A DNA stretch of 64,000 nt from Datisca glomerata (taxonomy: Eukaryota; Streptophyta; Magnoliopsida; Cucurbitales; Datiscaceae): positions 1 through 64,000 of the forward strand of contig QANY01007449.1 in the NCBI GenBank assembly GCA_003255025.1, in the 5' to 3' direction. Shown here one piece after another: positions 830-30,360 of this stretch (position 1 is the stretch's first letter; each line of letters begins with the position of its first letter). A model generated the notes under the pieces. It searched no databases. It had not been told where the DNA came from and saw only the letters and a program-made list of their open reading frames with translations. Both the position numbers and the translations under genes were made by a program.

Positions 830-2098
830 CTTGGAAGAGATTATGGGCCCATCAGGAAAGAGACCGGACATGAGATTTTCCCTTTAATTTTTGAGAGGGA
901 GATTGACTCTTTTTATTCTTTATTGAGTAACTTGACTCTTCTGAGAATTCAGAGTCAGAGCTTGTATTATTTTCAAGAAGAATGAGCATTTTTTGTATTA
1001 ACTCTTATTTTTCTTTGGATTTTTAGACCTGATTTTGCCTTTTGAAGAAGGTCTTTTGGAAGATTTTGAATTTTGGGAGGAATTTGATGATTGGTTAATT
1101 TGAGGAGCTTGGTTATATGGTTCATTAATTTTTAATGGAGCTTGGTTGAAAGGATTTGCTAGTCTCATATTGGGATGGATGCTTGCAAACTCATAATTGA
1201 TGGATGCCATAATTTTCTAGGTTTTCAACTTATCCCACCATTTAACATAATATTCTTTGGTGAAGATTCCTCTTTTAATCGAGTATTGACATTTCAAAAT
1301 TCAATGTATTTTGTATTTTATTGAAAAGTAAAGTATTTGAGGAAATAAAGCCTCAATCGGTGAGGGTTTGTAAACCTTTAAAAATAAATTGAAACATTTT
1401 TGTAAATCCATTGGAAAAAGTTATAAGGTAAAACTATGAGTGGACCACCATTTTAAGAACCAGCTTGGAAAATTAATTTTGAAATTGTTATTAAAATTTA
1501 AAAACCAAAAGTGAGAGAAATCACTATTTTGATGCAAGAAAATCTTGTGCAATGCATCAATATAGTCAAAATAATTATATTATTTTTTATTTAAAATTGT
1601 TTTGAAACTTGAAGGATGGATTCTCCAATCCTTCATAGTTATGATTCTGAGGATAGAGAAAGAATGGCATATGATTCTTTCTTCAGAATTTCTGGTCGGG
1701 CTAATTTTTATGGATTTTGTTTCTACGAGAATGTCCCTGTAGAAACTAAGGGTTTTCTTATTATGTCCAGGGACATAGTGGAATTTAGGGATAAAATGGG
1801 CTTTGGCAATTTGGGTAGGATCATTCAAATGAGCAAATATAGGCTCAATATGAAAAGGATTTTCACTGGCCATTTTTTGAAAATCAAATGATGAATTCTT
1901 GTATTATGAAATTAATTGGGCATCGAAGGATATTGGAATTGGGTCAAATTGGTTGGTTGATTGGTGATTAAGTCTATTGGACCCAAGTGTTGTAGATTGG
2001 GCTTGGTTAGGAGTATAAGACTCATTTTTGATTTGGGCCTTAAGGGCCAATTGTTGAGTCAAAAGTTCTTCTACTATTGAGCCATTTATCATTCTCAC
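830..2098 (-). pseudogene. EPRV ORF2-type Trp-rich domain and acidic tail, copy C
   Basis: Continues downstream of the AlkB domain. Pieces in different frames at 2098-1904, 1873-1580, 1450-1220 and 1210-998 cover one domain with the landmarks IPKFHYVPGHN, FYRDILVETKSI, a W-rich middle and a C-terminal run with Pro/Gln/Ser/Lys. A basic then acidic, Ser-rich tail follows (about 1100-830). Similar polypeptides are common as hypothetical proteins in plant genomes, and the same domain is recognisable in the second EPRV at 29200-30130. Function unknown; it corresponds in position to florendovirus ORF2 (inference). Broken by several frameshifts and stops. Confidence 0.7.
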
Positions 2099-2104
2099 AT
2101 GATT

Positions 2105-2590
2105 TCTGAACCTAATACTAATTCTTTCAGTTAAGGATTCTACTACATGCCTATGACTCTTTTAAAATCCGTCAGGCATGATGAAGAATGTTCATTCTAG
2201 AATCAGAAATTCTTTTATTGTTTTATTTAGAAATTTAATTTTAAATATTATTTGTCCCAAAAGGTTTATGGTTAAAATTTTACTGTTATCACAACAGATT
2301 TCATTATCTTTGTGAAAACCTATTTTTTCACCTTTTTCATACCACTGAATTGATGCTACATTGAAGTTATCCTTCAATCCAACATCTTCTAAAAGTTCAT
2401 CCAATTCATTAATCCAGTCATTTCTTGGATATTCAAATCCATTATGACCATAATTAATAAATGGGGATTTTGAACAAAAGGCGGTTGTTCTGCCATTAAA
2501 TTTTTTAATTTTAAAAGAATTTGTATTGAGTATGCTGGGTCCTACCTTTCCATATTCTAGTTGGTCGAAATTCTCAAGTTCCTCCATTGT
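2105..2590 (-). pseudogene. AlkB-like 2OG/Fe(II) dioxygenase domain in EPRV, copy C
   Basis: An ATG at 2587 opens a 131-codon reading frame. It shows the viral/plant AlkB signature: WYEKGEKIGFHKDNE with the iron-binding H-x-D pair (His92, Asp94 of this ORF), then ILTINL. After one in-frame stop near 2190 the frame continues with IMPDGF, KSHRHVV (distal iron His) and RISIRFR (the R-x5-R 2-oxoglutarate-binding motif). So all catalytic landmarks survive although two stops interrupt the frame. AlkB proteins remove 1-meA/3-meC type lesions from RNA or DNA; viral members are known from plant RNA viruses such as Flexiviridae. Position between RT and the ORF2-type domain is conserved in copy A. I judge it a viral, not host, gene because it is collinear in two EPRV copies. 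Confidence 0.82.
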
Positions 2591-2609
2591 TTAATCTTGG
2601 AATGATTCT

Positions 2610-2694
2610 CTGCATAAAATTATAAGAAAGAAGGTTAGGAATTGGATTAATAAATTGGACATTGAGGTTAAAAGTACTGAGAATAGGTTGCTAC
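2610..2694 (-). other. Intron-like gap between RT and AlkB, copy C
   Basis: On the minus strand the RT remnant ends at TGCCAG followed by GTAGCAACC. 85 bases on, a T-rich stretch ends in TTTATGCAG just before the AlkB ORF. The equivalent 95-base stretch in copy A (12437-12531) also has GT at the start and a T-rich ...TTTTGCAG at the end. It may be a viral intron or only a conserved intergenic gap; the frames on the two sides are off by one in both copies. Confidence 0.35.
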
Positions 2695-3320
2695 CTGGCA
2701 AGAATTTGTTTGGGAGTAATATTTTTCATTCAAAGTACATTCTACAGACTTGCAGTTAATTTTTAAAAGACATTTTTGAATTAAGGCAAATTGTATGATT
2801 TGATTAATGAAATAATAAACTCTAAGTCCTAGAAATCTATTCTGAGATAGTTTGGTTCTACTAACTTGTTTTATTGTCCTGGCAGATAATTTGGAGTAGA
2901 TCCAATATTGTTTAACATATTCATAATTGTAAATAATCAAGAAACTTAACCAGTGCTGTTTAATAAGAATACAGAAAATTGGGAAATTAATAATTTGATT
3001 AAAGTATTTACTTATCATATTCTGAATTTTACTTGGAGCAAATTTATAATGATCAAATATAATCTTGTATTTCTCAATCTTATTTGTCTGGTTTTGCCAA
3101 CATCTTTTCTATATCAGTATTTCTAAGTCTGTTGATTAAGTCTCTTTTGTTTAGCTTTGAATTTTTTATCCATCCTATAATATTCTTAGGAGGCTTATAA
3201 TTAATCTTTAGACGATGGATTTTTTGTTTGAAGATTTTAATTTTTCCCAATTTTATTTTTCTTGTAAAAACCCCAATGGTTTCTTTTTGTAGAAGATTGT
3301 ATTTATGGATTTGAAAACAA
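2695..3320 (-). pseudogene. EPRV reverse transcriptase remnant, copy C
   Basis: Viral-sense reading from about 3320 to 2695 holds degenerate RT sequence: IINRLRNTDIEKMLAKP-like start, then a fingers/palm region aligned with copy A (which keeps FSKFDIKSGFW) and a 116-codon open stretch at 3018-2668. The catalytic YIDD motif of caulimovirids is lost here (region reads LIIYNYEYV). The thumb runs straight into the AlkB gap; I see no RNase H domain between them, and copy A lacks it too. Confidence 0.65.
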
Positions 3321-3344
3321 AATTTTATTTTAAATTTTTTAAAT

Positions 3345-3912
3345 TCTCATTGTGAGGAAAAGAAAGGAATGTGAATTTAACAGGTTCATCTATGAGATAA
3401 GTAATTATCCCATCATATTCTGTTGTGAAAGGATACAACAAAGAGATGAATGGTAAACCCAAAATTATTTTATCTGTCATATTTTTTACTAAGACAAATG
3501 ATGTTTTAAAACATATATAATCTTATAAAATATGAACTTTGGGGATTTCATAATTAATATACATTCGGATACGATTGGCTGAAGACAGAGACTCTTTCGT
3601 CTTCTTGAAGTATTTCGGAGGAACTAGTCCTTCCTGCAAACAATTCAAATCTGCTCCTGAATCTACAAGAGTCATTGTTGTGAAATCTAAATCTTGAATG
3701 ATTATTCTAACCATTATGTGCCACTTTTTTATTTTTATGTGATTGAGAATTTGGATGAAATGTTCATCTCCTTCTTGGAAGTTTATGGGTTCTGCACCCT
3801 CATTATCAGAACTTAGTAATTTACTAGGTTCATTAAATTCTTGTTTATTAATTAGATTTTCTATTTTTAAAAGATTTAATTCCTCTTTTATTCCAGTGTT
3901 TGAATTCTTCAA
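3345..3912 (-). pseudogene. EPRV aspartic protease, copy C
   Basis: Retropepsin-like domain. The open stretch at 3912-3523 contains the active-site motif LVDSGADLNC with the catalytic Asp intact. A frameshift/stop at about 3523 moves the remainder (KNMTDKI, LGLPFISLLYP) into another frame down to 3345. In Caulimoviridae this enzyme cuts the polyprotein between capsid and RT. It follows the coiled, Lys/Glu-rich end of the capsid ORF (about 3912-4055), as in copy A. Confidence 0.8.
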
Positions 3913-4062
3913 ATCTTTTATTTCAATTTTAATATCTTTAATTTCTTTTTGAAGTTCCTGTAAGGTAACTTCCTTTTCTTTCTCTTTTATCCTATTGAAT
4001 TTTTTAAGAGTTTGTGAAAGACTTGCAGTATTATTAGACTTAGTATTTTCTATTGAGAATTG

Positions 4063-5300
4063 AACAATATCTAAGAGGGGATATTAAGAAGCAAGAAGAT
4101 AAACTGTATTATCCCCACAAGGTTTGGCTTTGATACCAAAAGGTGCGGAATTGAACAGTATTTAAGGGGGGTATTAAGAAGCAAGAAGATAAACAGTAAA
4201 GACTGTATTAATAAATAGTAATTACAAAAACTGTATTAGGGTGTAAGATTAAAAACTTACACAAACAGAGTTTATTGGCAACAATAAATTAGTGTTCCCG
4301 CTCACTAATTTATCAAGAACCGCCTATTATGGCTGGTTATTGATAGTATTGTTTACTTATTTGCTTACATGAATAGTTGCTTATATCTAATCTTACTCTC
4401 CACCCAAGTGGCTGGTTATTCTTACAATTGATTATTTCTCTGTATTATTTGTTTGTCTAATCTGTAATCTATTTTGGTATCAGAGCCAAACCAGGAGGCA
4501 TGGGTTTCTTATGCCATTTTATTTCTAATTTATTAATTTCTAAATTCTTAAATGTTTCAATATTGTTAATATTTGAAAATTCATCTATTGTGGATGATTC
4601 GTAAGTTGATTCTGACATATGACTATCTGAATTTGTATTATCTTCTTGGTTAATTACTTTCAATTCTTGAAATATTTCGTCAAATTTTTTAAGACTTAGA
4701 ATCTAAACTACAGTCTTAGTTCACTACCTTAACAGAGGAATATGACTCAGTGGATTTATTCTTTAGTTCCTGAATCATTTTATCAATTTTTTTATTAATT
4801 AGAATAATTTTTAAAGTGGTTTTATCTAAAAGATTTATTAAAGGTTTTTCTTTCAGGGTTTCACTAGGCTTAGGTTCATTGAGAATATCAATCTTTGTTT
4901 CAATTTTGTCTAACTGTTTACCTATTGTAATTAGACTCTAGTTAGTATAGTTGAGTTGTTCAACTACTTTTTTGTTTGGTTCTTCTTCCTTTGTAATTTT
5001 GAAAGGAGAAGTAGTGATTAAGTAATTTTTATGATTAATCATGATTTTCTCAGGAGGTGGATGACTAATAGATACTACACTAGAGTCTTCCTTAACCCAT
5101 TTATACTTTAAAATTACTTTGATATTTCTTTCGTAAATATCTTCAACATAATCTAGGAAAAATATATTAATTTTAAATTCTTGCACGGATGCCTTACATT
5201 CAGCAAGTATGACTTTTCTTTGATCCATATCATATGAATCTCTGAATCTATTACGTCTATCTAGATTGTCTGGGTCATTATTGTGTTAGATTAGACCTTC
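4063..5300. mobile_element. Scrambled EPRV fragments between copies C and A
   Basis: Three pieces of the same virus joined in mixed order. 4063-4320 is minus-strand promoter/leader (PBS at 4126-4138, stem-loop 4284-4313). 4320-4490 is plus-strand leader with a perfect PBS at 4475-4487. 4490-5300 is a minus-strand part of the capsid ORF, including a 96-codon open stretch (5228-4938, MDQRKVILAE) which matches copy B at 17470-17640 and then jumps over a deletion of about 600 bases to VEQLNYTN. Such scrambling is usual for pararetrovirus integrations. Confidence 0.75.
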
Positions 5301-5390
5301 CTAATCTGGTTTATATTCTTGTTTATCTCCTTGCTTCTTAATACCCCCTCGTAAATACTGTTCAATTCCGTGTCTTTTAGTATCAGAGCC

Positions 5391-5827: not shown

Positions 5828-8800
5828 ATGAGCAGGTTATCTAGAACTAGTTCTTCAAGTAGCATTAGGTCTATGATATCTTCAATATCCAACATAGTGG
5901 ATATGAATATTTTGAATACCCATCAGATGATCAGAATGATCATTTCGAATACCTTTCAGATGATCAAAAAAATCATTCTGAAGACTTTAATCAAGTAAAT
6001 GATAGGGTATGTAACATATCCAATAAAAATAAGAATTTCAATTCTAAATTATCCATTAGGATTCAAATAGAGCAAGAATTTAAAAATTTAAAAATTAAAG
6101 GTCTAGAACCTAAAGGAATAAGTTTTCAAGAAAGTCAGACAAACCTTAATAATAAACAATCTAATAAAATTAATTACCAATCTTTTAATTCTAAAGTTAG
6201 GGAGTATAACCAGTCTAGTACCCATAAAAGTTCCTTTTCTGGATCATCTATTAATAATGATCAAGATTTTAAGATTAAAGAATCAAAACAAAAATTATAA
6301 AAATTTAAATCCAAATATTCTGTAGCAAGAATACAAACTAGATTGAGCAAGTCTAAATAAACACAATAATGACCGGCCAATCTTAATCGATTTAGTAGGT
6401 TCAAAGATTCATATAATATAGATCAAAGAAAAATCATACTTGCTGAATGGAAGGCATTCATGCAAAAATATAAAGTTAACATATTTTTTCTTGATTATAT
6501 CGAAGATATTTATGAGAAAAATATTAAAATAATTCTTAAATCTAAATGGGTCAAAGAAGACTCCAGTGTGGTAACTGTCAGTCATCCACCACCTAAAAAA
6601 ATCCTAATTAATCATAATAGTTCTCAACCTAAAAAAGATTTCATTAAATCTCTCCAACTTCATTATGAGAAAACTCCTGATGAAGAAATACGTAGAAGGT
6701 TAAAATAATATCTTAGAATCAGATAACCATAGGTTAGAATCAACCTATGAGCCATCCATAATTCATAATTCTTTGAAACATAAAATTAAAGAATCCAGTA
6801 GGTCAGAATCCTATGAACCTTCAAATAGTATTGAGGAACCAACCAAAGATTTAGAAATTAAATTATCTGTCAATGTTAGTAACCATGACGGTATCTTTGA
6901 ATTAGAAATTCATAGGTTAAAACCCACCTATGAATATTCCATAATTAATGAATCTTCAAATATTAAAGAAATATTAAAGAATTTAAAAACTAATGAATCA
7001 TCTTATTCTGGTAAGATTTAGAATCAAAATAATTGTTCAGAATTCGAAACCCTTACTAATAATAAACTTCAAGAATTAGAGGACAGTAGTTCAAATTTAT
7101 AAAACCATAGGTTAGAATCAACCTATGAATCTTTCACAATTAATGAATCTTCAAACATTATCAAAATTGAAGAAACATTAAAATGTTTTGAAACTAAAAA
7201 ATCATCCTCCGAGGACATTAACCGTAGAAATTCTTTAATCACCGTTTCTCCTTTCAAGATTTCAAATGAAGAAGAATCAAATCAAAAATTAGTTGAACAA
7301 CTCAATTACACCAATCAAAGCTAACTACAATAGGTAAGCAATTAGATAAAATTGAAAATAAAGTTGATGATCTTCATAAACCTGAATCTTGTGAAACTCT
7401 AGAAGAAAAATATTTAATAAATCTTTCAAATAAAACCATTCCAAATATGGTTCCCCTCAATAAACATATTGATAATACACTACATGAACTAAAAATAATC
7501 AATCAAGATAATAGTTCAGATCCAGAAAGTCATAGGCCAGAGTCCATCTATGATTCGTCTACAATAAGTGAATTTTCAAACATTAATAATATTGAAGAAT
7601 CAATTAAAAATTTATAATCATCTGAAATTAAATTTGAAAAGATTATTAATAATATACGTCATGAATTAAAGGTAATTAATCAACACAATAATTTAGATTT
7701 AGAAGATCATAGGTCAGAATCCACCTATGAATCGTCCACGATAAATGAATCTTCAAACATGAATAATATTGAAAAATCACATAGAAATTTAGAAACTAAT
7801 AAATTAGAAAGGAAATAGCCTAAAAGTCTATTCCTCTTGATATTAAAATTTCTGAAAATTCATTAGTTAACCAATTTTCTGTTTCTACAGATAAACTGCA
7901 CAAACGGAATATTGATGGGCTTTCTAAGCAGGAAGTTCTTAATAAATTTCAACACATGATAATGATAGCTAACAGCTACATTACCACACACAATTTACTT
8001 CACAATGAGGTAATCAATTTTTTAGTCACAGGATTCACAGGAATGTTATGTTCCTGGTGGAAAAATTATCTCACAAAAGAATCCAAAAATCCAATCATTT
8101 CAGCAATAAAGATTAATACTGAAGGAACTCTAAATATTGAAAAAAACTGGAAACAATACTTAATGCCACCAATACACTTCTCTACACAATAGTTAAATAC
8201 TTCATTGGAATGCTGAGTAATATTACTTCACATATCCATAATTAATTGGCCAAACTTAGGTGTCCAACCCTAAGTAAAATCCAATGGTACAAAAACATAT
8301 TTTTGTCCAAAATAATGTCAAGGGATGATAACAATCAATTCTCTTGGAAAGAAAAATTTATTAATAAATTACACATTTTATACACACACAAAATAAGAGT
8401 AGTTGTTAGTAATAACCTAGAAAACATAGACTATGATAGTCTTACCTATGGTACAATTATTACTACAATACAAAAGAAAGATTTTGGAATATGCAGTGAT
8501 ATGAAAAATTAAATTATAGAATATGAATTAGGCAATTCTTGTGAGCAATATGATTTACCCCTTATTAGAAAAAAAATTTCATTCAAATCCTAGAAGGTCT
8601 CACAAGCCTAATAGGAGAAAATACCATAAGAATAAACATAAGATTTTTAACCAATATTTTTCAAAGAATAAAAATTTTGACAAACGTTTCTCCAAGAATA
8701 AAATCTATTCTAGAAGAAAACATAATAAATATTTTTTTGATAAAAATAAACTTAAGTATTTTAAATATGGCCAAAATGGTCATTCCTCTAAAACTTGTCA

Positions 8801-9240
8801 AGTTAAAGACAAAATTAATCAATTAAAAATCTCTAATAAAGAAAAATAAGAATTGTTTAGAATCGCAGAGTCAATAGAAAACTATGAAAGTGATAGTGAT
8901 AATTTAGGAGAATTTGAATACCCTGAGTCCTCAAAATTTAACTCTTCCAGTTATGACAGTAATTCTCTTAACATCTCTATGGGGTCTAAGGTTAGTTGTC
9001 AAAATCTCTTGTTGGATTTAATTAGCAAAATTAAAAATCCAAAATACCTCGAAAGACTTAGTAAAGTAATTTTAAAAGAAAAATACTAAGTCTAACAATA
9101 TCGCAAGCCTTTCACAAACTCTTAAAAAATTTAATATGGGTAAAGGAAAGAAAAAGAAGTTATCCTACATGAACTTCAGAAAGAAATTAAAAATATTAAA
9201 ATTAAAAGGAGAATTAAATCTTTTAATAAAGAGTTTAATA
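5828..9240 (+). pseudogene. EPRV capsid-type polyprotein ORF1, copy A
   Basis: Starts at ATG 5828 (Ser-rich MSRLSRTSSSSSI-like). Parts in order: acidic Ser/Asp-rich N-terminus; a Lys-rich segment; a conserved block around 6420-6600 (MQKYKVNIFFLDYIEDIY, KWVKEDSSVV, HPPP); about 1.1 kb of repeated acidic segments with HR.ESTYE.S; capsid core at 7930-8520 (WW-N-YLT motif at the start); a very Lys/Asn-rich basic stretch; a zinc-knuckle relic at about 8750-8800 whose first two Cys are Tyr (YFKYGQNGH...TC); and a C-terminal Leu-rich/charged part to 9240. At least a dozen stops or frameshifts. No start-proximal movement-protein motif seen. Confidence 0.75.
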
Positions 9241-9984
9241 GTCCAGGGACTGAAGGGGACTAATAAGACTGAATAGACCGACCCTTATCTTTTTCCCTCT
9301 CTCCCGCACTGGTATCGGTGGCTGAACCGCAACTGCTAGTGATGGGACGGAGAAAGAACTCCTCCCCGTCAGATTGGTTTTCTCTCTCCAATTAGGAGAG
9401 GCTGATAAGAAATCGTATCAGATGCAATTCCCCGCCCAGCCATCGGAGAGAGGAACTGTCCTAGCTGAGCTTTCACTCCTCGATTCAAGAATAACTCGGA
9501 GATAGGAGGAGAATAAGAGGTTAGCAACGTACGAAGATTTTCCAAGCGGGAGTCTAGGTTTTCCGAGCTAGCCCGGAAAAGAGGCAAGCCCGTATACTGT
9601 ATAAAGGTTGAGGTCAAATCCATTCTCCCCATGTGCTCTCGGGCATAACCGTGGGGATTAGGACATAACTCCCGTTGTTTAAGGGTAAGAGGTTGATGAA
9701 TGAGGTGGTTAAGAAAAAAAGGTTAGCCGGGGTTGGGATTGGTAACGGACTCGTGCGGAATGCCTAATAGCTAAATATCTGTAAAAAAAGCATATACATG
9801 AATCGAAAGACAGATAGATATCGAAGTGGGCCAGCGAATGAGTCTACCAGCCGTCTATTTAGTATCTAACTCGTCTCTCTAGCTTGGATAGACGATCCAA
9901 CCCCCTGAAGCAAGGTATGCACGAACCACTTGGGCGAGGTGAGGGCCTAAGCAAACTACCAAGGGGCCTTAGCCTTTGAAGTAA
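9241..9984. other. Organelle-like (mitochondrial-type) DNA inserted in EPRV copy A
   Basis: Base composition jumps from about 28 percent GC in the flanking viral sequence to roughly half GC. The style (many short GGAAAGAGG, CTCTCTCC, CGGAGATAGG words; no viral or retroelement coding) resembles plant mitochondrial intergenic DNA. Viral sequence stops near 9240 and resumes near 11317 at the equivalent place in copy C (about 3840-3890), so 9241-11317 is an insertion relative to copy C. The 87-codon open frame at 9632-9369 shows no recognisable product. Mitochondrial origin is inferred from style alone. Confidence 0.5.
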
Positions 9985-11317
9985 GTAAATCAACCATAAC
10001 TTTGGAATCAGTTTCTAGAACAATAGGACATGTACTGATTTCTGATATTGATTTGAACAGTAAGATGCCCGCTCGGAATTCAGCAACGACACTTGAACAT
10101 ATACCATAGCAATGAGAGCTGGCTGCAATTAAATGACCAAGATGATTTAGTATAATACAACCACCTCCAGAGGTACCTGGGTTACCTTTAGATGCACCAT
10201 CTGTATTTATTTTAAATTCTCCAATCTAACCATTTGACGACTCTCAAAGGAGATCTCTGAGGTTCTGTTGTGTTTATGTTCAGAGCTTCAAGAACTATCT
10301 GATCAGCAAAAGAACAATAGCGAGAGACTTTTCAGCACTTGGAGACATCCAAAAACTTTGTTTTATCACCCTGTTCAGTAGGTAAGACTGAGAGTGGGAT
10401 TTCCGCGTCTAAAGTTTCGTTCTTTCCATACTTCCCATGTGTGAAAGAAGGGAATGGAGCGGATCAGATGGCCAACAAGAGAACCTGATTTATAGGAAGA
10501 GAAGATTATCAAAAATCTGCTACAAATTCCTTCCTTACTCACGAGATTAAGCCCAAAGAGACTGCTCACTTTGTTCAAAAGGAAAGATGCCAGGTCGCTG
10601 TGATAAACAAATGATTGAGAGTTTCCATTTTTGGTCTATTACAGCAGTGACATTTGCTAGCAAGATGAATCCCAAGCCCTTTGACCCTGTCATCCAAAGG
10701 TAATGCATGGTAGAACAGCTTCCAAGCAAACATGTTAAGCTTTGGTGGGACATTCTTGCTCCAAACTGCTTTTGCCCAGGTCTTTTACTCAGTTCTATTA
10801 CGAATTCACTCCAAAGCGGACCGAAGAGTGAAGCTACCTGAGTTCTCCTTAATTCACACAACTCTGTCCTTCTTTTCTGAAAGAAAGATATCTAAGCTGA
10901 TGATGCTTTCAACAATTTCAGATGGGACCAATAACAGGTTTTAAGTTCCAGTTCCCATTGCTATCCAGTAATTCTTCAATTTTAGGAAAGCAAAGAGGAT
11001 CCGCTGTAGCATATTCTATTAATGGCTTATCCAGCAACCAGTTATCAGTCCAAAAGTGAGTTTCAGTTCAATCTCCAATAAGCCAACGAGAATTATCAAT
11101 TAGAAGCTTAGCATTGGCAATTATTTCAGACCAAAGCTTTGAAGAATTTTGAGAAGGAGAGGCCAGCCACAGAGGCTTTTGTTTGAGATATTTTTTTTTT
11201 TAGAATGGAGTCCAAAGACTGTTTGAATTGAGCAGTTTCCAGCCCATCTTCATCTTGAAAGCTTTAGATCCATCTTGAAAAGTTCTAACGTCAAGACCTA
11301 AAATTCATGAATCTTGT
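9985..11317 (-). mobile_element. LINE (non-LTR retrotransposon) 3' fragment, degenerate
   Basis: Reading the minus strand from about 11300 down: a segment with KMGWKLL and SLWT; then RWLIGD, ETHFWTDNWLLDKPL (10990-11110); then a zinc-binding RVT region with WKLFYHALPLDDRVKGLG and CHCCNRPKMETLNHLF (about 10600-10740); then WEVWKERN (about 10410); and finally a plant-type RNase H domain, DGASKGNPGTSGGG ... LETDSKVMVD (about 10000-10210). This is the standard C-terminal order of plant L1-type ORF2 proteins. Frameshifts and stops break it, and no poly-A tail or target duplication is evident. It abuts the organelle-like segment, so both may have arrived together. Confidence 0.82.
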
Positions 11318-11319
11318 AA

Positions 11320-11812
11320 ACTAGGAGAACCTAGTAGATTCTCAATTTCAATTAATAAGGTTAAAGAACATATTATCAACAATCAAAATAATGATAATTT
11401 TATCCAAACACTTAATTACATCAAAATCAAGAAATGGTGTATAATGGTAAGAATAATAATTCAAGATTTTGATTTCACAACAATGACTCTTGTTAATTCA
11501 GGAGTAGATTTAAATTGTATGCAGAAAAGACTAGCTCCTCCCAAGTACTTCAAGAATATAAAAGCATCTTTGTCTTCTGCCAATGGTACTCATATACACA
11601 TCAAATATGAAATACCCAAAGTTCATAGTTGTCAAGACAATGTATGTTTTAAAATATCGTTTGTCTTAGTAAAAAATATGGCTGATAAAATATTTATAGG
11701 TTTACCATTCATTTCTTTGTTGTATCCTTTTACAATAGAGTATGATGGGATAATTACTTATCCTATGGATGAACCTGTTAAATTCAAATTTATTTCTTTT
11801 TTTATTTTTTAA
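11320..11812 (+). pseudogene. EPRV aspartic protease, copy A
   Basis: Counterpart of the copy C protease. The 122-codon open stretch from 11444 holds VRIIIQDFDFTTMTLVNSGVDLNC: the catalytic DSGAD of copy C reads NSGVD here, so the active-site Asp is lost. The C-terminal IFIGLPFISLLYPF flap/core region is intact. Coding begins just right of the insertion point at 11317. Confidence 0.8.
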
Positions 11813-11889
11813 TCCAAAGGATTGAGGAACATCTTCAAGATACTGTTCTTCAAGAAAAAATCTTTGAACAAAGAATTATTCATTTAGTA

Positions 11890-12436
11890 ATCAATTACAA
11901 GCCCTTTAACAATATTTTGGAATGGATAAAATATCCAATAACAAACAAAAGGGACTTAATCAACAGATTTAGAGAAGCTGTTGCGTTCTCTAAGTTTGAC
12001 ATAAAATCTGGATTTTGGAAAATCCAGATAAATAAGATTGGTAAATACAAAATTATATTTGATCATTATAAAATAATACTATTTGATCTTAAATTTAAAT
12101 TTTGCAATATAATGATTGAATTCTTTAATCAATTCTTGATTGACTGCATTCTTTGTAAACAATATTGGTTGAATTTCTTAATTGTTTACATTAATATCAT
12201 TTACTTTAAATATGACAAACAATACTGAAAATACTTTGAATTATTTACCAAGATAATAAAATAGAACATTTTAGTCATCTTTGCAAAAAAAATCGAATTA
12301 TTTCAATCAAAAAATAGATTTCTAGAATTTGAAATTTATTTCATACAATTTGCCTTATTAAATAAAAAATTTCCTTTAATTAATTATGAATCTGCATAAC
12401 ATGTTTCAAGATTCCTTCCAAACAAAGTTTTGCCAG
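11890..12436 (+). pseudogene. EPRV reverse transcriptase remnant, copy A
   Basis: Contains KRDLINRFREAVAFSKFDIKSGFW-type RT fingers/palm sequence (11917-12090), then a frameshifted palm where the YIDD motif has decayed to YINI (about 12190), then KKIELFQSKNRFL (about 12285) of the connection. It ends in a thumb-like piece next to 12436. RNase H is absent, as in copy C, so the deletion predates or is shared by both copies. Confidence 0.72.
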
Positions 12437-12531
12437 GTAACAATCTATTTATAGCAATTTTTATTTCAATATTTAATTTATACAATTTATTAATAATTAA
12501 ATTCATGACCCTTACCTGTAATCTTTTGCAG
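12437..12531 (+). other. Intron-like gap between RT and AlkB, copy A
   Basis: Begins GTAACAATC after TGCCAG and ends in a T-rich ATCTTTTGCAG. Length is 95 bases, against 85 in copy C. GT and AG are kept in both although the interior has diverged strongly. It could be a viral intron or a short intergenic gap; there is no RNA evidence. Confidence 0.35.
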
Positions 12532-12534
12532 GAA

Positions 12535-13045
12535 ACCATACCAAGATTCTGCAATAGGACAATTTGAGAAACCTAGCCTACTAGAATATGAGAAGGTAAA
12601 TGCAAGATTATTTAATCAAAATTATTTTAAAATCAAGAAACTCAATAGCAAAACAATCGATTTTTGTTCAAAACTCACATCCATTAATTATGGATTTAAA
12701 TATCCAAAATATTACAGGACTGATGAGTTGGATGAAATTTTAGAACATGTTGGGTTGAAGTATGACTTCAATACAACATTAACTCAATGATATAAGAAAA
12801 GTATGAAAATAGATTTTTACAAAAATAGTGAAATCTGTTATAATGGAATTTTAATTGAAAATCTATTGAGACAAGTAAATTCTAAAATTGAATTTTCAAA
12901 TAAAACAATAAAAGAATTGTTGGTATTAAAAGGATCTTTCTTCATCATGCCTAAGGAATTTCAAAAATGTCATAAGAATGCTGTGAAATTCTTAATAAAA
13001 TGAATCAATATCACTTTAAAAAAATATGTGATAAATGTTTCAAAA
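12535..13045 (+). pseudogene. AlkB-like domain in EPRV, copy A (catalytically dead)
   Basis: Aligned with the copy C domain over its whole length: LLEYEKV, FKIKKLNSK, a deleted/shifted middle, ELLVLKGSFFIMPKEFQKCHKNAVKFL. The H-x-D iron pair is replaced (FYKNSE in place of FHKDNE), and the starting ATG of copy C is ATA here. The stop-free 66-codon piece at 12803-13003 is its C-terminal half. This copy confirms that the domain belongs to the viral unit and fixes its place after RT. Confidence 0.78.
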
Positions 13046-13049
13046 ATAG

Positions 13050-14200
13050 AAGAGTCTTCGACTCAACAATTGGCCCTTAAGGTCAAAATCAAATAGGAGC
13101 CTTCTACTCCTAATCAAGTCCAATTAACAATACTTCGATCCATCAGACCCGATTATCAATTAACCCTGGTCAAACAATTTGACCTCTTTTCAAATACTCA
13201 ATCTTTTAATGCTCAATCACTTGACTAACTAATTTATCATAATCTCTTTCATATTAAACCTTCATTTGCTCATCTGAAAGATCCAACACAAATTGCTAAA
13301 GCCCATTTAATTCCCAAATTCCATTATATCCCTAGACACAATAACAAAAATCTCAGTTTCTACAGAGATATTCTCTTAGAAACAAAATCCATAAAAAATG
13401 CTGAGAAAAGAAACATTTACCATTCTTTCTCTATTCTCAGGATCATAACTATGAAGGTTTGGAAAATCCATTCTTTAAGTTTCAAATTATTTTTAAATAA
13501 AAATAATAATTATTTTAATGATATTGATGCATGGCACGAGATTTTCTTGCATCAAAGTAGTGACTTTTCTCACTTTTGGTTTTTAAATTTTGATAACAAT
13601 TTTAAAATTGATTTTTCAAATTGGTTCTCAAAATGGTAGTCCATTCATGGTCTTACCTTAGAATTTTTTCCAATTGATTTACAACAATGGTTCAACTTAT
13701 TTTTAGAGGTTTATAAGCCATCACCAATTGAAGTTTCATTTTCCCAAATACTTTATTTTACAAACAAATACAAAATACCATGGATTTTGAAATGGCAATA
13801 CTCGGTTGAAAATAAAATCATCACCAGACCATATTATACTAAATGGTTAGATAAATTGAATACCTATAAAATTATTGCATCCATCAACCATGAATTTTCA
13901 AGTATCCAACCCAATATGGGACTAACAAATCCATTTATCCAAGCTCCATTAAAATTTGATAAGCCCATTGACCTAGCCCCACAAATAAAACTATCCAGTC
14001 CAAATTCTTTTAAACCCAAATCAAATCTTGAGTCCAAACCCTATTCAAGGGTAAATCAAAGACCACCAAGCCTAAACTCAAATTAAAGGAAGAATTAATT
14101 CTACTTCTCCTTTTAGAAGATAATAATGAACCAGACTCTGAATCACCTGCTGAGTCAAGTCACCAAACTAAATCAAAATCCAAATAGATCAATTACCCCT
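13050..14200 (+). pseudogene. EPRV ORF2-type Trp-rich domain and acidic tail, copy A
   Basis: Fragments in shifting frames. Landmarks: IPKFHYIPRHN (13310-13345), FYRDILLETKSI (13360), MKVWKIHSLSFK (13451), a WF-rich stretch HFWFLNFDNNF ... NWFSKWWSIHG (13575-13650), YKIPWILKWQY (13770-13800), TRPYYTKWLDKL (13820-13855). Then a Pro/Ser/Lys-rich tail and an acidic end (LLLEDNNEPDSES). Copy B keeps the same region at 19918-20830. Function unknown. Confidence 0.72.
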
Positions 14201-16325: not shown

Positions 16326-16834
16326 TATTAATACCCCCATGCTTCTTAATACCCCATCCAAATATTGTTCAATTCCGCGCCTTTTGGTATCAAAACCAAA
16401 CCTGGTGGGGATAATATTGTTCATTAATTGTTTCTACTTCAATTTCTGCATAATTTCAACTGTTTTCCGCCTATTATGGTTGGTTATTAATAATATTGTT
16501 TACGTATTTGCTTACATGAATAATTACTTATATTTAATCTCACTCTCCGCCCAAGTGGCTGGTTATTCTTATAATTGATTATTTCTCTGTATTATTTGTT
16601 TGCCAAATCTGTGAATCTGTTCATCAGAGGCTGACGTACCAGCTTTTATTTGGTTAAGCTTCAGGGACTTAGGTAAGACCTCTTAGATACGTAAATTCCG
16701 AGGGTGTGGTGGTTGTAGAGGCAAAAGGGAGAAGAGTAAAGCCTAGTAGGAGGTTGTAGAAGTCACAACAAGATTAGTAACAAAAATATAGTATGAAATT
16801 CTCAATAATAAGAATAATTTAGTTATTCTGAGCA

Positions 16835-19800
16835 ATGAGTATGTTATCTAGAAGTAGTTCTTCTAGTAGCATTAGGTCTATGATATCTTCAATATCCAAC
16901 ATAGTGGATAATGAATATTTTGAATTTGCAGATGATCAAGTAGATCATAAATATTTTGAATACTCATCAGATGATCAGAATGATCATTTCGAATACCTTT
17001 CAGATGATCAAGAAAATCATTCTAAAGACTTTAATCAAGTAAATGATAGGGTATGGAACATATCCAATAAAAATAAGAATTTCAATTCTAAATTATCCAT
17101 TAGAATTCAACTAGAGCAAAAATTTAAAAATTTAAAAATTAAAGGTCTAGAACCTAAAGGAATAAATTTTCAAGAAAGTCAGACAAACCTTAATACTAAA
17201 CAATCTAATAAAATTAATTACCTATCTTTTAATTCTAAAGTTAGGAAGTCTAACTAGTCTAGTACCCCTAAAAGTTCCTTTTATGGATCATCTATTAATA
17301 ATGATTAAGATTTTATGATTAAAGAATCAAAATAAAAATTAAAAAATTATAAAAACTTGAATCCAAATATTCTGCAGCAAGAATACAAACCAGATTGGGC
17401 AAGTCTAAATAAACACAATAATGACCCAGCCAACCTTAATAGACATAATAGGTTCAAAAATTCATATAATATGGATCAAAGAAAAATTATACTTGCTGAA
17501 TGGAAGGCATTCATGCAAAAATATAAAGTTAACAAATTTTTCCTTGATTATATCGAAGATATTTATAAGAAAAATATTAAAATAATTTCTAAATCTAAAT
17601 GGGTCAAGGAAGACTCCAGTGTGGTAACTGTCAGTCATCCACCACCTAAAAATCCTAATTAATCATAAAAGTTCTCAACCTAATAAAGATTTCATTAAAT
17701 CTGTCCAACTTCATTATGAGAAAACTCATGATGAAGAAATACTTAGAAGGTTAAAATAATGTCTCAGAATCAGATAACCATAGTTTAGAATCAACATATG
17801 AGCCATCCATAATTCATAATTCTTCAAAACATAAAATTAAAGAATCTTGTAGGTCAGAATCCTATAAACCTTCAATTAGTATTGAGGACCAATCCAAAGA
17901 TTTAGAAATTAAATCATCTGTCAATGTCAGTAACCATGACAGTATCTTTGAATTAGAAATTCATAGGTTAAAATCCACTTATGAATATTCCATAATTAAT
18001 TAATCTTCAAATATTAAAGAAACATTAAAGAATTTAAAAACTAATGAATCATCTTATTCTGGTAAGATTGATAATCAAAATAATTGTTCAGAATTCGAAA
18101 ATCTAACTAATAATAAATTTCAAGAATTAGAGGACAGTAGTTCAAATTTAGAAAACCATAGGTTAGAATCAACCTATGAATCTTTCACAATTAATGAATC
18201 TTCAAACATTAGCAAAGTTGAAGAAACATTAAAATGTTTTGAAACTAAAAAACCATCCTCTAAGGACATTAACCATAGAAATTCTTTAATCACCGTTTCT
18301 CCTTTCAAGATTTCAAAGGAAGGAGAATCAAATCAAAAATTAGTTGAACAACTCAATTACACCAATCAAAGTCTAATTACAATAGGTAAACAATTAGACA
18401 AAATTGAAAATAAAGTTGATGATCTTCATAAACCTGAATCTAGTGAAACTCTGGAAGAATTTTTATAATAAATCTTTAAAACAAAACCATTCCAAATATG
18501 GTTCCCCTCAATAAACAGATTGATAATGCATTTTATGAATTAAAAATAATCAATCAAGATAATAGTTCAGATCCAGAAAGTCATAGGTCAGAGTCCACCT
18601 ATGATTCGTCTACAATAAATGAATCTTCAAACATTAATAATATTGAAGAATCAATTAAAAATTTAGAATAATCCGAAATTAAATCTGAAAAGACTATTAA
18701 TAATATACGTCATGAATTAAAGGTAATTAATCAACATAATAATTTAGATTTAGAAGATCATAGGTCAGAATCCACCTATGAATCGTCCACGATAAGTGTA
18801 TCTTCAAACATTAATAATATTGAAAAGTCACATAGAAATTTATAAATTAATAAATTAGAAAGAAAATGGTCTAAAAGGCCTATTCCTCTTTATATTCAAA
18901 GTTCTGAGAATTCTTTAGTTAACCAATTTTCTGTTTCTACAGATAAATTGCACAAATAAAATATTGATAGACTTTCTAAGTAGGAAGTTCTCAATAAATT
19001 TCAACACATGACAATGATAGCTAACAGCTACATTAGCACACACAATTTACTTCATAATGAGGTAATCAATCTTTTAGTCACAAGATTCATAGGAATGCTA
19101 TATTCCTGGTGGGAAAATTATCTCACAAAAGAATTCAAAAATCTCATCCTTTCAACAATAAAGATTAATGTTGAAGGAACACTAAATATTGAAGAAAAAC
19201 TGGAAACAATACCTAATGCCACTAATACACTTCTCTACACAATAGTTAAATACCTCATTAGAATGTCGAGTAATATTACTTCACATATCCATAATCAATT
19301 GACCAAACTTAGATGTCCAACCCTAAGTAAAATACACTGGTCCAAAAACATATTTTTGTCCAAAGTAACGTCAAGGGATGATAACAATCAATCATCTTGG
19401 AAAGAAAAATTTATTAATAAATTACCCATTTTATACACACACAAAATAAGAGTAGTTGTTAGTAATAACCTAGGAAACATAGAGTATGATAGTCTTACTC
19501 ATGGTACGATTATTACTACAATACAAAATTAAGATTTTGGAATATGCACTGATATGAAAAATAAAATTATAGAATATGAATTAGGAAATTCTTGTGAGCA
19601 ATATGGTTTACCCCCTATTAGAAAAAAATTACATTCAAACCCTAGAATGTCTCACAAGCTTGATAGGAGAAAATACCATAAGAATAAGCATAAGATTTTT
19701 AACCAATATTTTTCAAACAATAAAAATTTTGACAAACGTTTCTCCAAGAATAAAATTTATTCTAGAAGAAAACACAATAAATTTTCTTTTGATAAAAATA

Positions 19801-19918
19801 AACTTAAGTATTTTAAATATGGTCAAAATGGTCATTCCTTTAAAACTTGTCAAGTTAAAGACAAAATTAATCAATTACAAATCTCTAATAAAGACAAAAT
19901 TAATCAATTGAAAATTAA
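16835..19918 (+). pseudogene. EPRV capsid-type polyprotein ORF1, copy B
   Basis: Same order as copy A and slightly better preserved: ATG at 16835 opens a 140-codon Ser/Asp-rich stretch; a second open piece at 17357-17662 has LAEWKAFMQKYKVN and VKEDSSVVTVSHPPP; repeated acidic segments to 18870; capsid core 19008-19532 (174 codons, WWENYLT motif, LRCPTLSKI); basic Lys/Asn-rich part and zinc-knuckle relic 19554-19911. The first two knuckle Cys are Tyr exactly as in copy A. After 19918 the frame enters ORF2 sequence because of the deletion. Confidence 0.78.
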
Positions 19919-20830
19919 TCCATTTCATTCCCAAATTCCATTATGTTCCTAGACACAATAACAAAAATCTCAGTTTTTACAAAGATATCCTCTTAGAAAT
20001 AAAATTCATAAAAAATGCTGAGGAAAGAATTATTTACCATTCTTTCTTTATTCTCAAGATCATAACTATGAAGGTTTGGAAAATCCATTCTTCAAGTTTC
20101 AAAGTATTTTTAAATAAAAACAATAATTATTTTAACGGTATTGAAGAATGGCACGGGATTTTCTTGCATCAAAGTAGTGACTATTCTCACTTTTGATTTT
20201 TAAATTTTGATAACAATTTCAAAATTGATTTTCCAAATCGGTTCTCAAAATGGTGGTCCATTCATGGTCTTACCTTTGAACGTTTTCCAATTGATTTACA
20301 ATAATAGTTCAATTATTTTTAGAGGTTTATAAGCCCTCACCAACTGAGGTTTCCTTTCCCCAAATACTTTATTTTACAAACAAATACAAAATACCATAGA
20401 TTTTTAAATGGCAATACCCGGTTGAAAATAAAATCCTCACCAGACCATATTATACTAAATGGTGGGATAAATTGAATACCTATAAAATTATTACAATCCA
20501 TCAACCATGAATTTGTAAGTATCCAACCCAATATGGGACTAGCAAATCTATTTATCCAAGCTCCATTAGAATTTGATAAGCCCATTGACCTAGCCCCACA
20601 AATAAAACTATCTGGTCTAAATTCTTCTAAACCCAAATCAAATCTTGAGTCCAAATCCTATTCAAAGGGTAAATCAAAGACCACCAAGCCTAAACTCAAA
20701 TTAGAGGAAGAATTAATTCTACATCTCCTTTTAGAAGATAATAATGAACCAGGCTCTGAATCACTTGCAGAGTCAAGTCACCAAACTAAATCAAAAATCC
20801 AAATAGATCAATTACCTCTCAGCAATTGAA
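19919..20830 (+). pseudogene. EPRV ORF2-type domain remnant, copy B
   Basis: Begins within the IPKFHYVP region right after the deletion junction. Carries FYKDILLEIKFI, MKVWKIHSSSFK, the WFSKWWSIHG-type stretch (20245-20275), then an open 98-codon tail (20533-20829) with LFIQAPLEFDKPIDLAPQIK, a Ser/Lys-rich segment and an acidic LLLEDNNEPGSES end. It lacks the AlkB part entirely. Confidence 0.72.
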
Positions 20831-27247: not shown

Positions 27248-28030
27248 TGTTGGGGGTTATGCACTCAAAACATGTGTATTGACATTTTGATATAAAATTT
27301 AAATAGGGTTACATTTTTCTTATAATAGTTCTTTTAAATTATTGTTGAATAATTTATATAAATATTTGAAAATTCCATATTCATTAATGAGACTATGATC
27401 GTGTATTAGTACGAGAGGATTAAAATCATAGATAATGAATGAAATTATCAACAACATATTAAAGAATGGAAACTTTAATGAATGGTTGCTAGTACAGTTC
27501 ACCAAACATTATGAATGCGTCTCATCTAGATCCAGATCATTGATGTGGATAGACATCTTAGTGAATGTACTTTATATATTAAGATTGTATATAACAGGAC
27601 CGATGTGGATTAATATATTTATTTACGTGTCGTTTATCATAAAAATTTAATACACATCAATTCGATGATCATGTGTAGATCAGTCTGAATCCTGAGTAGT
27701 CATAAACTCCTATGCATATTTACTGAATCTTTTGATTCACTCGTTAAGGTCTGTTTGTTAATCAGGCTAGTTACTTTTGTTTTGAAGATTCAGTGAAGTG
27801 GATGGTTGAGGACATGATCTTACAAGATTTGAAATCTAAGCTTTTCTAACGGATCGTATATTGGTTCTCTTAAGTGTTAATTCTAGAACTGAATGGTTAT
27901 TGAGCTCAAATTTATAATAAGATTATAAATTAGTCATTCACTAGTGAATTAATGGTAATTAAGGATCAAGAGATAATTAGAAGGGTAAAATGATAATTTT
28001 GACAAGTTCTAATTTACGAACCAATAATTG
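27248..28030 (+). repeat. Inner copia 5' LTR, left part
   Basis: Starts TGTTGGGGGTT. Its last 90 bases (GGGTAAAATGATAATTTTGAC ... AATTGGAG) match 38755-38828 in the 3' LTR. Cut at about 28030 by EPRV sequence. Confidence 0.72.
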
Positions 28031-28549
28031 GAGGATAAAACTGCCTTTCCAGTACCCTTTGGCCATTATGAATGGAATGTTTTACCATTTGGTGTGAAAA
28101 ATGGTTCATCTGAATTTCAACATATCATGAATGATATCTTTAAAGCTTATACTGCATTTATTATCTGTTACATTGATGATGTCTTAGTATTCTCATCATC
28201 TATAGATCAGCATTTTAAACATCTACATAATTTTAAGAATGTTGTTAACCGAAATGGTTTAGTTTTATCTGCCAGTAAAATAAAATTATTCCAAACAACA
28301 GTAAGATTCTTAGGCCATAACATTTCTAATGGCACTATCATTCTTATTAACCATAGTATAGATTTTACATCTAAATTTTTAGATGAGATTAAGGATAAAA
28401 CACAATTACAAAGATCCTTAGGAAGTCTGAACTATATCCGTGATTTTTATCCAAAATTAGCTCAGGATACTGCTCTTCTGAATAAGAGACTTCAGAATAA
28501 ACCTATTACTTGGACACCAAATTTGACACTAGCTGTAAAAAAACATTAA
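28028..28549 (+). pseudogene. Florendovirus-like reverse transcriptase (palm to thumb)
   Basis: An open stretch of 173 codons. Contains FPVPFGHYEWNVLPFGVKN, the intact catalytic CYIDDVLVF (YIDD at 28169-28180), KIKLFQTTVRFLGH and SLNYIRDFYPKL in the thumb. The N-terminal fingers are missing because the fragment starts at the insertion junction. The apparent ATG at 28028 belongs partly to junction sequence and is not the natural start. Confidence 0.88.
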
Positions 28550-29012
28550 AACTAAAATAAAACAGTTACACTATTTAGCTTTACCAAATCCTACAAGGCA
28601 TAAAATTCTAGAAACCGATTCTTTCAATCTAGGTTATGGAGGTATTCTCAAACACATAAATCTTCATAATCAAAAAGAAGAATTATTAAGATTCACCTCT
28701 GGTACTTGGAAAGGACTAGCAAAAAATTATCCGACGATTAAACAAGAATGTTTAGCAATAGTGAAATGTGTACTAAAGTTTCAAGATGATCTGTTAAATC
28801 AACATTTTCTAATCTGTGTTGACTGCTCTGCAGCAAAATAAATCTTTAAGAAAAATGTACAAAATCTTGCATCTAAACAGATATTTGCATCATAGCAGAT
28901 TATTTTATCTATTTTTTATTTTGACATTGAGTATATTAAAGGTGAACAGAATTCTCTTTCTGATTTTCTAACCCGTGAATATTTACAAGGACAAAACTCT
29001 AATAATGAGTAA
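28550..29012 (+). pseudogene. Florendovirus-like RNase H
   Basis: After a frameshift near 28545 the frame continues with ETDSFNLGYGGIL (first acidic residue region), FTSGTWKGLAKNYPTIKQE, IVKCVLKFQDDLLNQHFLI, and ends with EYIKGEQNSLSDFLTREYLQGQ and stop TAA at 29010-29012. Two in-frame stops interrupt it. In the cell RNase H removes the RNA strand during reverse transcription. Confidence 0.83.
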
Positions 29013-30360
29013 CCGAAGAAGAGGCCGCAACTCTTATGGGCGCAGATGAGGTAGAAACACTCTGCAATATCTGAATAATGGGATCTTTTGGCCATCAGAA
29101 TTCCTAAGTGTACAAGAGGTTACTCACAAGAGTACTAAAGAGGTCCTTTTGACACTAGAGTAGTATGTTCCTAACCGTATCTCTGAGGAAACAATCCTCA
29201 TTATTGAACCGAATGATGAAAAATGAATGGAAGATCCATGAGAGATAAAGACTCGTTATCTCTCCACACAACAGTACCCAACCAAATTCGAACATTATAG
29301 ATATAGCTATGAATCTATAGTAGTCCAATCTGGAAGCATAGAAATAAGACATACATTCCATGACTCTAACCGAAATACCAGCCCTATTACTTTCAGTAAG
29401 GTTGTAATCCGTAACTTCATCTCCATCAATCAATAGGGTCTGCACCCCCATACTACCAGAACTATGGAGATACATCAAAAAACTGTAAAATACAGTTATT
29501 GGGATTACATGAAATCCTTTACAAATACGTTTTATTATCAAAATCTGATACGTAACCATACGTGGTTTATCCGTATATGTTCCAAAGTATTAGACGCAAG
29601 TCTACTAAATTGGTTCCTCCTATAGTGGGATAATTTTGGTCTCATGTTTGATACTTTACCTGAAGTACTTCAAATTGAATTTAAGGAATGGCATTCACAA
29701 TATGTCTTTCTCAATAAAAACATTACCGTATCAAAGACGTCGGTACATTTTATTATCCGATTCAATATCCCATGGATTTGGAAACGGGATCTCAAATGTG
29801 AATACCAGAATGGTATACCTGTACTTAAACGAATCTTCTTCACAAAATGGCGGGATAAATGTATGAAACCCCTCTTAACTGAATTAATTAAGATGATTAA
29901 AACCCATGTACAAGCCTGCTATGAAGCAGTGCCTAAGACGTTACCAGCATCAACGACCAATCCATTCTTAAATGCTCAAAACATAATTAAACAACAGCTC
30001 CCACCCATCAGTGAAAAAGAACTGGCCGTCAAAACCATGGACTTTGTCAAAAACCAGTTCCAATATGGTTTTGGATCCGACACCTCCTCCATGGTTACAT
30101 CTAGTGCACACCCGAGTCCACAACGGTAATCAACTCAGACTAATCTACCTACTACAGATCTCAGTCTTGACCTCACTCAACATAATGCCTTCATCATCTT
30201 AAGCGGTGAAAGTCAAGACTCGAATGATGATCTGCTAGATCTGTCCGCAGAACTAGACCCATCAGAGCCAGCCATTGCTGACTTTTGGAAATCTTTGACT
30301 TCTATCATTTCAGACCAGATCGAAAAAGACAGGAAAAATAAAATTGATCTGATATGATCT
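29005..30360 (+). pseudogene. Florendovirus-like ORF2 (unknown function)
   Basis: ATG at 29005 overlaps the RNase H stop (ATGAGTAA), a usual coupling of two viral ORFs. Starts MSNRRRGRNSYG. The domain then follows in several frames: QYPTKFEHYRYSYESIVVQS, FHDSNRNTSPITFSK, SYWDYMKSF, then 161 open codons at 29644-30129 with FNIPWIWKRDL and FFTKWRDKC. These align with the ORF2-type domain of the AlkB-lineage copies (FYRDILVETKSI, PWILKWQY, YYTKWLDK). No AlkB domain is present before it. An acidic tail follows to about 30360. Confidence 0.72.

What the first reader, a model, noticed from the sequence alone, without database searches (positions are those of the whole stretch)
2105..2590. AlkB-type RNA/DNA dealkylase domain built into an endogenous pararetrovirus
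Seen: two EPRV copies (2105-2590 minus; 12535-13045 plus) carry, right after RT, a domain with IGFHKDNE (H-x-D), a distal His in KSHRHVV and R-x5-R in RISIRFR. Known: these are the AlkB 2OG/Fe(II) dioxygenase signatures; viral AlkB domains are familiar from plant RNA viruses (Flexiviridae and a few others), where they repair methylated viral RNA. I know of no AlkB in the standard Caulimoviridae gene list. Inference: an ancestral pararetrovirus captured AlkB, fused in front of ORF2, perhaps to protect pregenomic RNA or DNA from methylation damage or host marks.
Basis: partly seen in the sequence, partly recalled or inferred. Interest (0 to 1): 0.87.

Follow-up and report, generated by a model that had tools for sequence, protein, structure and literature searches.

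The report
Endogenous plant virus carrying AlkB domain
A fossil plant DNA virus, present in many copies in this genome, carries an AlkB-type enzyme domain resembling those that strip methyl groups from DNA or RNA, set into a version of the virus that has lost a working reverse transcriptase; I found no report of such a domain in this virus family.

Summary
Largely confirmed and extended. Window 2090-2590 (minus) encodes an AlkB-like 2OG/Fe(II) oxygenase domain, broken by two in-frame stops. Eleven open sibling copies, picked from 30 fetched, all match Pfam 2OG-FeII_Oxy_2 (best 3.4e-10); PHROGs gives 'alkylated DNA repair' (2e-7). The domain belongs to the virus: in 41 of 47 copies with enough flank it lies between an RT/RNase H remnant and ORF2, and distant pairs show purifying selection (dN/dS 0.22; protease side 0.21, RT remnant 0.51). 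A sibling element has movement, coat and zinc-finger domains; six copies read YINN/HINN for the RT motif YIDD. This fits 'component B' of bipartite florendoviruses (Geering 2014). Two loci with RT and whole RNase H run straight into ORF2 without AlkB; the B-type extra segment is about 536 bp. No AlkB in Caulimoviridae was found in open-licence papers. Likely role: demethylase for viral RNA or DNA (inferred). Not done: count of component A and origin tree (search server down); fold failed (pLDDT 35).

The parts
2090..2590 (-). AlkB-like 2OG/Fe(II) oxygenase domain, EPRV copy 1; in-frame stops at 2192-2194 and 2162-2164
   Evidence: Pfam PF13532 1.3e-4 on the open piece; residues located; 83% identity to the L038 domain
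2594..3244 (-). collapsed RT / RNase H C-terminal remnant, copy 1
   Evidence: tblastn with the L038 piece RTrem; sibling readings; RNase H similarity of L001 only at E 0.028
3256..3891 (-). aspartic protease region, copy 1
   Evidence: PF00077 RVP 1.9e-4, 22.1 bits, on 3523-4083; tblastn AP and AP2
4481..5321 (-). coat-side pieces (DUF7746-bearing piece and N2 piece), copy 1, partial
   Evidence: tblastn
941..1948 (-). ORF2-type region downstream of AlkB, copy 1
   Evidence: tblastn 72% identity; same family as P0001-P0005
6052..8996 (+). N2, DUF7746, coat and zinc-finger region, copy 2
   Evidence: tblastn
11318..11800 (+). protease region, copy 2
   Evidence: tblastn AP and AP2
11866..12528 (+). 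RT/RNase H remnant, copy 2
   Evidence: tblastn RTrem; PF00078 at 0.0048, below cutoff, on 11782-12228; RNase H C-terminal similarity at 12411-12509
12560..13030 (+). AlkB-like domain, copy 2, catalytic residues lost
   Evidence: tblastn 49% identity; residues read
13241..14172 (+). ORF2-type region, copy 2
   Evidence: tblastn 69% and 64% identity
16832..20790 (+). copy 3 of the same kind of element: zinc-finger region joined to ORF2; no match to protease, RT remnant or AlkB pieces
   Evidence: tblastn
28028..30129 (+). distinct caulimovirid: RT with YIDD, RNase H, ORF2-type protein, no AlkB match (natural comparison)
   Evidence: PF00078 3e-22; reading; ORF2 profile match, probability 96; map

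Best explanation
The feature is an AlkB-type Fe(II)/2-oxoglutarate dioxygenase domain that an ancestral florendovirus-like pararetrovirus acquired between RNase H and ORF2. It is carried by the RT-defective half of what looks like a bipartite virus: component B = movement-coat-protease-RT/RNase H remnant-AlkB-ORF2; component A = RT-RNase H-ORF2 without AlkB. Shown: family by profile, recurrent position, purifying selection, RT motif lost in the carrier, two related loci with RT and RNase H that lack the insert. Inferred: the domain was an active demethylase, made as part of the component-B polyprotein or from its own ATG; it oxidatively removed methyl groups from viral pregenomic RNA (m1A and m3C would block reverse transcription; m6A marks are an alternative) or from single-stranded viral DNA, while component A supplied RT in trans.
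For: PF13532 and PF03171 match 11 of 11 open copies, which I picked from 30 loci. PHROG 21963 'alkylated DNA repair' 2e-7 for L007, 1e-4 for L037. HxD, His and the R-x5-R stretch align with P0007, an independent PF13532 protein; an R-x5-R stretch ending TFR is also in E. coli AlkB. In the genome 150 of 2901 first-look candidates were scored and all 150 match at E<=2.6e-51. Order RT remnant-AlkB-ORF2 in 41 of 47 copies. Movement, caulimovirus coat and zinc-knuckle matches in L038. AlkB dN/dS 0.457 for close pairs (dS<=0.1, 125 pairs), 0.224 for distant pairs (dS>0.6, 288 pairs), against 0.509 in the RT remnant. [YH]INN for YIDD in six copies. L063 and L069 have RT parts, whole RNase H, then ORF2, with no AlkB match. 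Junction alignment. Five ORF2 homologues of 319-434 aa show no 2OG match.
Against: Of eight more diverged open copies scanned, three pass the PF13532 cutoff (L058, L039, L041), three match below it (L037, L056, L046), L048 matches only PF03171 and L031 matches nothing. Catalytic columns are no better conserved than the typical column (non-majority fraction 0.09-0.15; median 0.09, mean 0.14); 32 of 55 copies keep all five residues, and a clade of three (L051, L031, L033; support 0.77) shares loss of the metal Asp. No sequence match to a solved structure; weak match to E. coli AlkB; NCBIfam AlkB far below cutoff. Fold prediction failed (pLDDT 34.9). Component A rests on two loci, both decayed and neither seen at full length (L063 shows only the RT C-terminus). 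The genus rests on gene order and ORF2, not on an RT tree.
Confidence: 0.7

Rival explanations
1. The domain is a host ALKBH gene fragment that landed in one EPRV locus and spread by duplication or transposition within the genome; it was never a viral gene.
For: All copies examined come from one genome; viral and prokaryotic collections gave no relative. Host ALKBH genes could not be compared.
Against: Copies diverge down to 66% identity, keep the same neighbours in 41 of 47, and show dN/dS of 0.22 at high divergence, like the protease side at 0.21 (12 pairs only).
Confidence: 0.07
2. The domain lost catalysis early and served as a structural or RNA-binding module of the ORF2-type protein.
For: Catalytic columns are not extra-conserved and a clade of three shares loss of the metal Asp; window copy 2 lost its metal ligands.
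Against: 32 of 55 copies keep all five residues, in most parts of the tree.
Confidence: 0.2
3. The elements are not a packaged genome component but a non-autonomous retroelement derived from the virus, amplified inside the nucleus with borrowed RT; AlkB helped that cycle.
For: RT motif lost and high copy number.
Against: Movement and coat domains persist in an open 1235-aa frame of L038, which an intracellular element would not need; components with no RT of their own are described for florendoviruses (PMC4241990, passages).
Confidence: 0.2

Closest known systems
Bipartite endogenous florendoviruses, component B (Geering et al. 2014, PMC4241990; passages seen)
   Same: MP-CP-AP polyprotein, RT and N-terminal RNase H lost, C-terminal extension homologous to ORF2 of component A
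   Different: The paper's main text has no alkb, oxygenase, demethyl or 2OG (supplements not seen); here a segment of about 536 bp with AlkB lies between the RNase H remnant and ORF2
AlkB domains of plant RNA viruses (Alphaflexi-, Betaflexi-, Closteroviridae; as cited in PMC9289625 and PMC2714080, passages seen)
   Same: virus-encoded AlkB-family domain; that those also show HxD...H and R-x5-R is recalled, not tested
   Different: there in positive-strand RNA viruses; here in a reverse-transcribing DNA virus ahead of ORF2. No tree made.
AlkB (ALKBH5-like) ORF2 of orchid Ty3/gypsy elements (PMC9289625, passages and abstract start seen)
   Same: a reverse-transcribing element that captured an AlkB-family domain; its title calls it a functional m6A RNA demethylase domain
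   Different: LTR retrotransposon with a separate ORF; here a caulimovirid, ahead of a florendovirus-type ORF2; whether this one is ALKBH5-like was not tested
P0007 (193 aa, unnamed, PF13532)
   Same: aligned over the catalytic half, 33% identity over 95 columns
   Different: stand-alone protein of unknown source

Membership tests
AlkB-like 2OG/Fe(II) oxygenases (PF13532) | Profile match above curated cutoff | tested here: met
   L007, L008, L010, L027 above 31.2 bits; 11 of 11 chosen open copies match at E<=0.001. Window piece alone below cutoff; of eight diverged copies three above, three below, two without PF13532
AlkB-like 2OG/Fe(II) oxygenases (PF13532) | HxD...H metal triad and R-x5-R | tested here: met
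   All five residues in 32 of 55 copies; window copy 1 yes, copy 2 no. That this pattern defines the family is recalled
AlkB-like 2OG/Fe(II) oxygenases (PF13532) | Double-stranded beta-helix fold | tested here: inconclusive
   AlphaFold2 of the 132-aa window piece, pLDDT 34.9
AlkB-like 2OG/Fe(II) oxygenases (PF13532) | Oxidative demethylation of DNA or RNA | not testable with these tools
   needs an enzyme assay
Caulimoviridae | Movement protein, caulimovirus coat domain, zinc knuckle, retropepsin | tested here: met
   L038 pieces: PF01107 2.6e-18, PF22909 2.7e-13, zf-CCHC 3.5e-5; RVP on window 3523-4083, not on the L038 pieces scanned
Caulimoviridae | RT-RNase H | tested here: not met
   In the AlkB element only a remnant: [YH]INN for YIDD in L005, L015, L022, L031, L037, L064; YIDD seen only in AlkB-less L069 and the distinct window virus. 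Read as loss within the family, since movement and coat domains are met
Florendovirus component B (Geering 2014) | RT and N-terminal RNase H missing; MP, CP, AP kept; C-terminal ORF2 homology | tested here: met
   RT missing as a working domain, a remnant stays; MP and CP; AP; ORF2
Florendovirus component B (Geering 2014) | Partner component A with RT-RNase H and ORF2 in the same genome | tested here: met
   L063 and L069, both partial; N-terminal ORF1 structure of A not seen
Florendovirus | RT placement in the genus | not tested
   no named reference RT on hand and genome search down
Plant RNA virus AlkB clade | Phylogenetic grouping with flexivirus AlkB | not tested
   no reference sequences fetched

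The most novel reading that the evidence does not exclude
A bipartite plant pararetrovirus put an acquired AlkB demethylase on the component that lost its own RT, so one component reverse-transcribed and the other kept the shared pregenomic RNA free of methyl lesions or marks: a virus-encoded RNA or DNA repair enzyme or epitranscriptomic eraser in Caulimoviridae, shared in trans.
Probability: 0.4. Interest if true: 0.87.

Novelty: new variant of a known kind. Interest (0 to 1): 0.76.

Why it matters
AlkB domains are known from plant RNA viruses and from an orchid retrotransposon family; a reverse-transcribing DNA virus with one implies that methylation of viral RNA or DNA also limits pararetroviruses. 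It would join a domain of predictable chemistry to florendovirus ORF2, described in print as of unknown function (PMC4241990, PMC10377300, passages), and it gives the RT-less component a contribution of its own, a possible reason why a split genome was kept.

Tried and rejected
Structure: AlphaFold2 of the open window piece with two distant relatives gave pLDDT 34.9; no fold search was run. Solved-structure sequence searches: 0 matches. IMG/VR scans with the AlkB profiles, the ORF2 profile and P0007: none; GTDB contigs with an AlkB profile: none. The AlkB scans were seeded from stretches N-terminal to the active site, so these misses are weak. Protein database: two weak AlkB relatives, none with the wider profile. 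NCBIfam: only weak matches. Genome-wide search for component A and for host ALKBH genes: the server did not answer, so no host-versus-virus tree and no count of A. Papers: the AND searches gave 5 papers, 0 and 8; AlkB passages of all 8 were looked at, and none reports AlkB in a caulimovirid. Searches were broad searches with 20 of 15,113 and 15 of 56 papers listed; nothing relevant in the lists. In the main texts of PMC4241990, PMC5766536, PMC10377300, PMC9719215 and PMC13308828 alkb, oxygenase (also inside words) and demethyl occur 0 times. Supplements, preprints and most subscription papers not searched. PMC2553587 not held.

Considered and rejected: chance motif (profile E-values; ORF2, RT-side, movement and coat pieces as controls gave no 2OG match); host fragment in a single array (rival 1); AlkB as a standard part of ORF2 (P0001-P0005, L063 and L069 lack it).

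Full report
What is there. The window lies in an unnamed 678 Mb genome, a plant by its content (for example an ethylene-receptor-like gene). Tblastn with separate pieces of one sibling element (L038) maps three related EPRV copies in the window: copy 1 (941-5321, minus), copy 2 (6052-14172, plus, interrupted between about 9.0 and 11.3 kb) and copy 3 (16832-20790, plus, zinc finger joined to ORF2), and a distinct caulimovirid at 28028-30129. The finding is the AlkB-like domain of copies 1 and 2.

Check of the observation. In copy 2 the domain is recognisable (49% identity to the L038 domain), but its metal ligands and last Arg are substituted and its first Arg codon is a stop. The open piece of copy 1 gives PF13532 at 1.3e-4, below the curated score. 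Eleven open sibling copies, picked from the 30 loci, all match PF13532 and PF03171; L007, L008, L010 and L027 exceed the PF13532 cutoff. Of eight more diverged open copies, three exceed it, three match below it, one matches only PF03171 and L031 matches nothing. PHROGs adds 'alkylated DNA repair'. Two unnamed relatives, P0006 and P0007, came from 5.8 billion proteins at 8e-5 and 5e-4, and none with the wider profile; P0007 is a clear PF13532 protein and aligns over the catalytic half with 33% identity. Similarity to E. coli AlkB is weak, so this is a remote member.

It is viral. The genome search scored 150 of 2901 candidates, and all 150 match at E<=2.6e-51, 66-100% identical. Of 47 copies with at least 700 bp on both sides, 44 have the RT/RNase H remnant just upstream, 43 have ORF2 just downstream and 41 have both. 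In L038 two open frames of 1235 and 902 aa lie in line, separated by one stop codon; pieces of the first match movement protein, caulimovirus coat domain and zinc knuckle, and the second runs from within the protease region through the RT remnant and AlkB into ORF2. Pfam named the protease only on window copy 1. ORF2 is 33-37% identical to five database proteins in which no AlkB is seen (P0002 may be N-terminally incomplete). The name ORF2 follows Geering et al. 2014 (PMC4241990, passages), where it is a 45-58 kDa protein without known homology; that P0001-P0005 are florendovirus ORF2 is my inference from length, position and shared family.

Selection. By Nei-Gojobori on 55 copies (three duplicate loci dropped), AlkB dN/dS is 0.457 at dS<=0.1 (125 pairs) and 0.224 at dS>0.6 (288 pairs), not falling evenly in between (0.375, 0.407, 0.321). 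In the high bin: protease side 0.212 (12 pairs), ORF2 0.385 (94), RT remnant 0.509 (69). Close pairs mostly reflect decay after integration, distant pairs the virus's own evolution. Caveats: pairs are not independent, and loci were chosen by AlkB similarity, many divergent ones for having no stop in it, so the lower stop density in AlkB (0.28 per 100 codons against 0.56-1.41) is not evidence. Against a strict catalytic reading, the five catalytic columns are only as conserved as the typical column, 32 of 55 copies keep all five, and a clade of three shares loss of the metal Asp.

Component B. In six copies (L005, L015, L022, L031, L037, L064) the RT motif YIDD reads YINN or HINN; in others such as L008 I could not recognise the motif stretch. 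The six are not all close kin, so the loss was probably inherited from a replicating ancestor, though parallel decay of both codons is not excluded. The remnant passes into a C-terminal piece of RNase H, clear in L037 (1.2e-7) and weak (E up to 0.5) in many others. This matches component B of bipartite florendoviruses (RT and N-terminal RNase H missing, C-terminal extension homologous to ORF2; PMC4241990, passages). A matching component A is present: L063 has the RT C-terminus, a whole RNase H and ORF2; L069 has RT with YIDD, RNase H and ORF2, with stops and frameshifts; neither has an AlkB match. Aligning L063 with B-type copies, homology ends at L063:3767-3768 for L037 and L060 (the L008 alignment runs on loosely to 3827) and resumes at 3809-3818, so A has some 40-50 bp where B-type L037 has 536 bp (2413-2948, worked out by hand), which is the AlkB segment. 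Copy 3 of the window and L061 show B-side pieces without AlkB, but there the RT remnant is gone too. An ATG stands at the second codon of the domain in 46 of 49 loci with that codon aligned, of 58 loci including three duplicates, so AlkB-ORF2 may first have been a separate frame, later fused to the polyprotein; in L008 the RNase H piece lies in another frame than the open frame that reaches AlkB.

How it probably works. Shown: domain family, position, constraint, RT motif lost in the carrier, related loci with RT and RNase H but without the domain. Inferred: Fe(II)/2OG-dependent demethylation of viral nucleic acid. From general knowledge of AlkB enzymes (recalled), m1A and m3C stop reverse transcription, so repair of the pregenomic RNA template would directly help a pararetrovirus; removing m6A is the alternative, reported for the orchid gypsy AlkB (PMC9289625, title and passages). 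In a bipartite virus the enzyme would act in trans on both components.

Known or new. In the open-licence library none of the 8 papers holding both caulimovir and AlkB reports AlkB in a caulimovirid (AlkB passages), none holds florendovirus with 2OG, and five florendovirus or caulimovirid papers contain neither alkb, oxygenase nor demethyl in the main text. Supplements, preprints and most subscription papers were not searched. I file the domain as a remote AlkB-family member by profile, and the carrier as a caulimovirid that fits florendovirus component B, with genus placement by RT not tested.

Noticed in passing
window 28028-30129, plus: A distinct caulimovirid with YIDD motif, RNase H and a divergent ORF2-type protein but no AlkB match.
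   Followed up: partly
window 9956-10225, minus: LINE-type RNase H reading inside the interruption of EPRV copy 2 (type named by eye).
   Followed up: no
window 16832-20790, plus: EPRV copy 3 has the zinc-finger region joined directly to ORF2, without match to protease, RT remnant or AlkB: deletion derivative or another arrangement.
   Followed up: partly
L031, L033, L051: Three divergent copies form a clade (support 0.77) that shares loss of the metal-binding Asp of AlkB; perhaps a lineage with a dead enzyme.
   Followed up: partly
L060, L061, L064: Dense, partly inverted and truncated pieces of this element side by side, suggesting clustered or recombined integration.
   Followed up: no
window 45994-48487, plus: Ethylene receptor-like host gene (ETR1_N and GAF at 45994-47109, HisKA at 48053-48487).
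   Followed up: no
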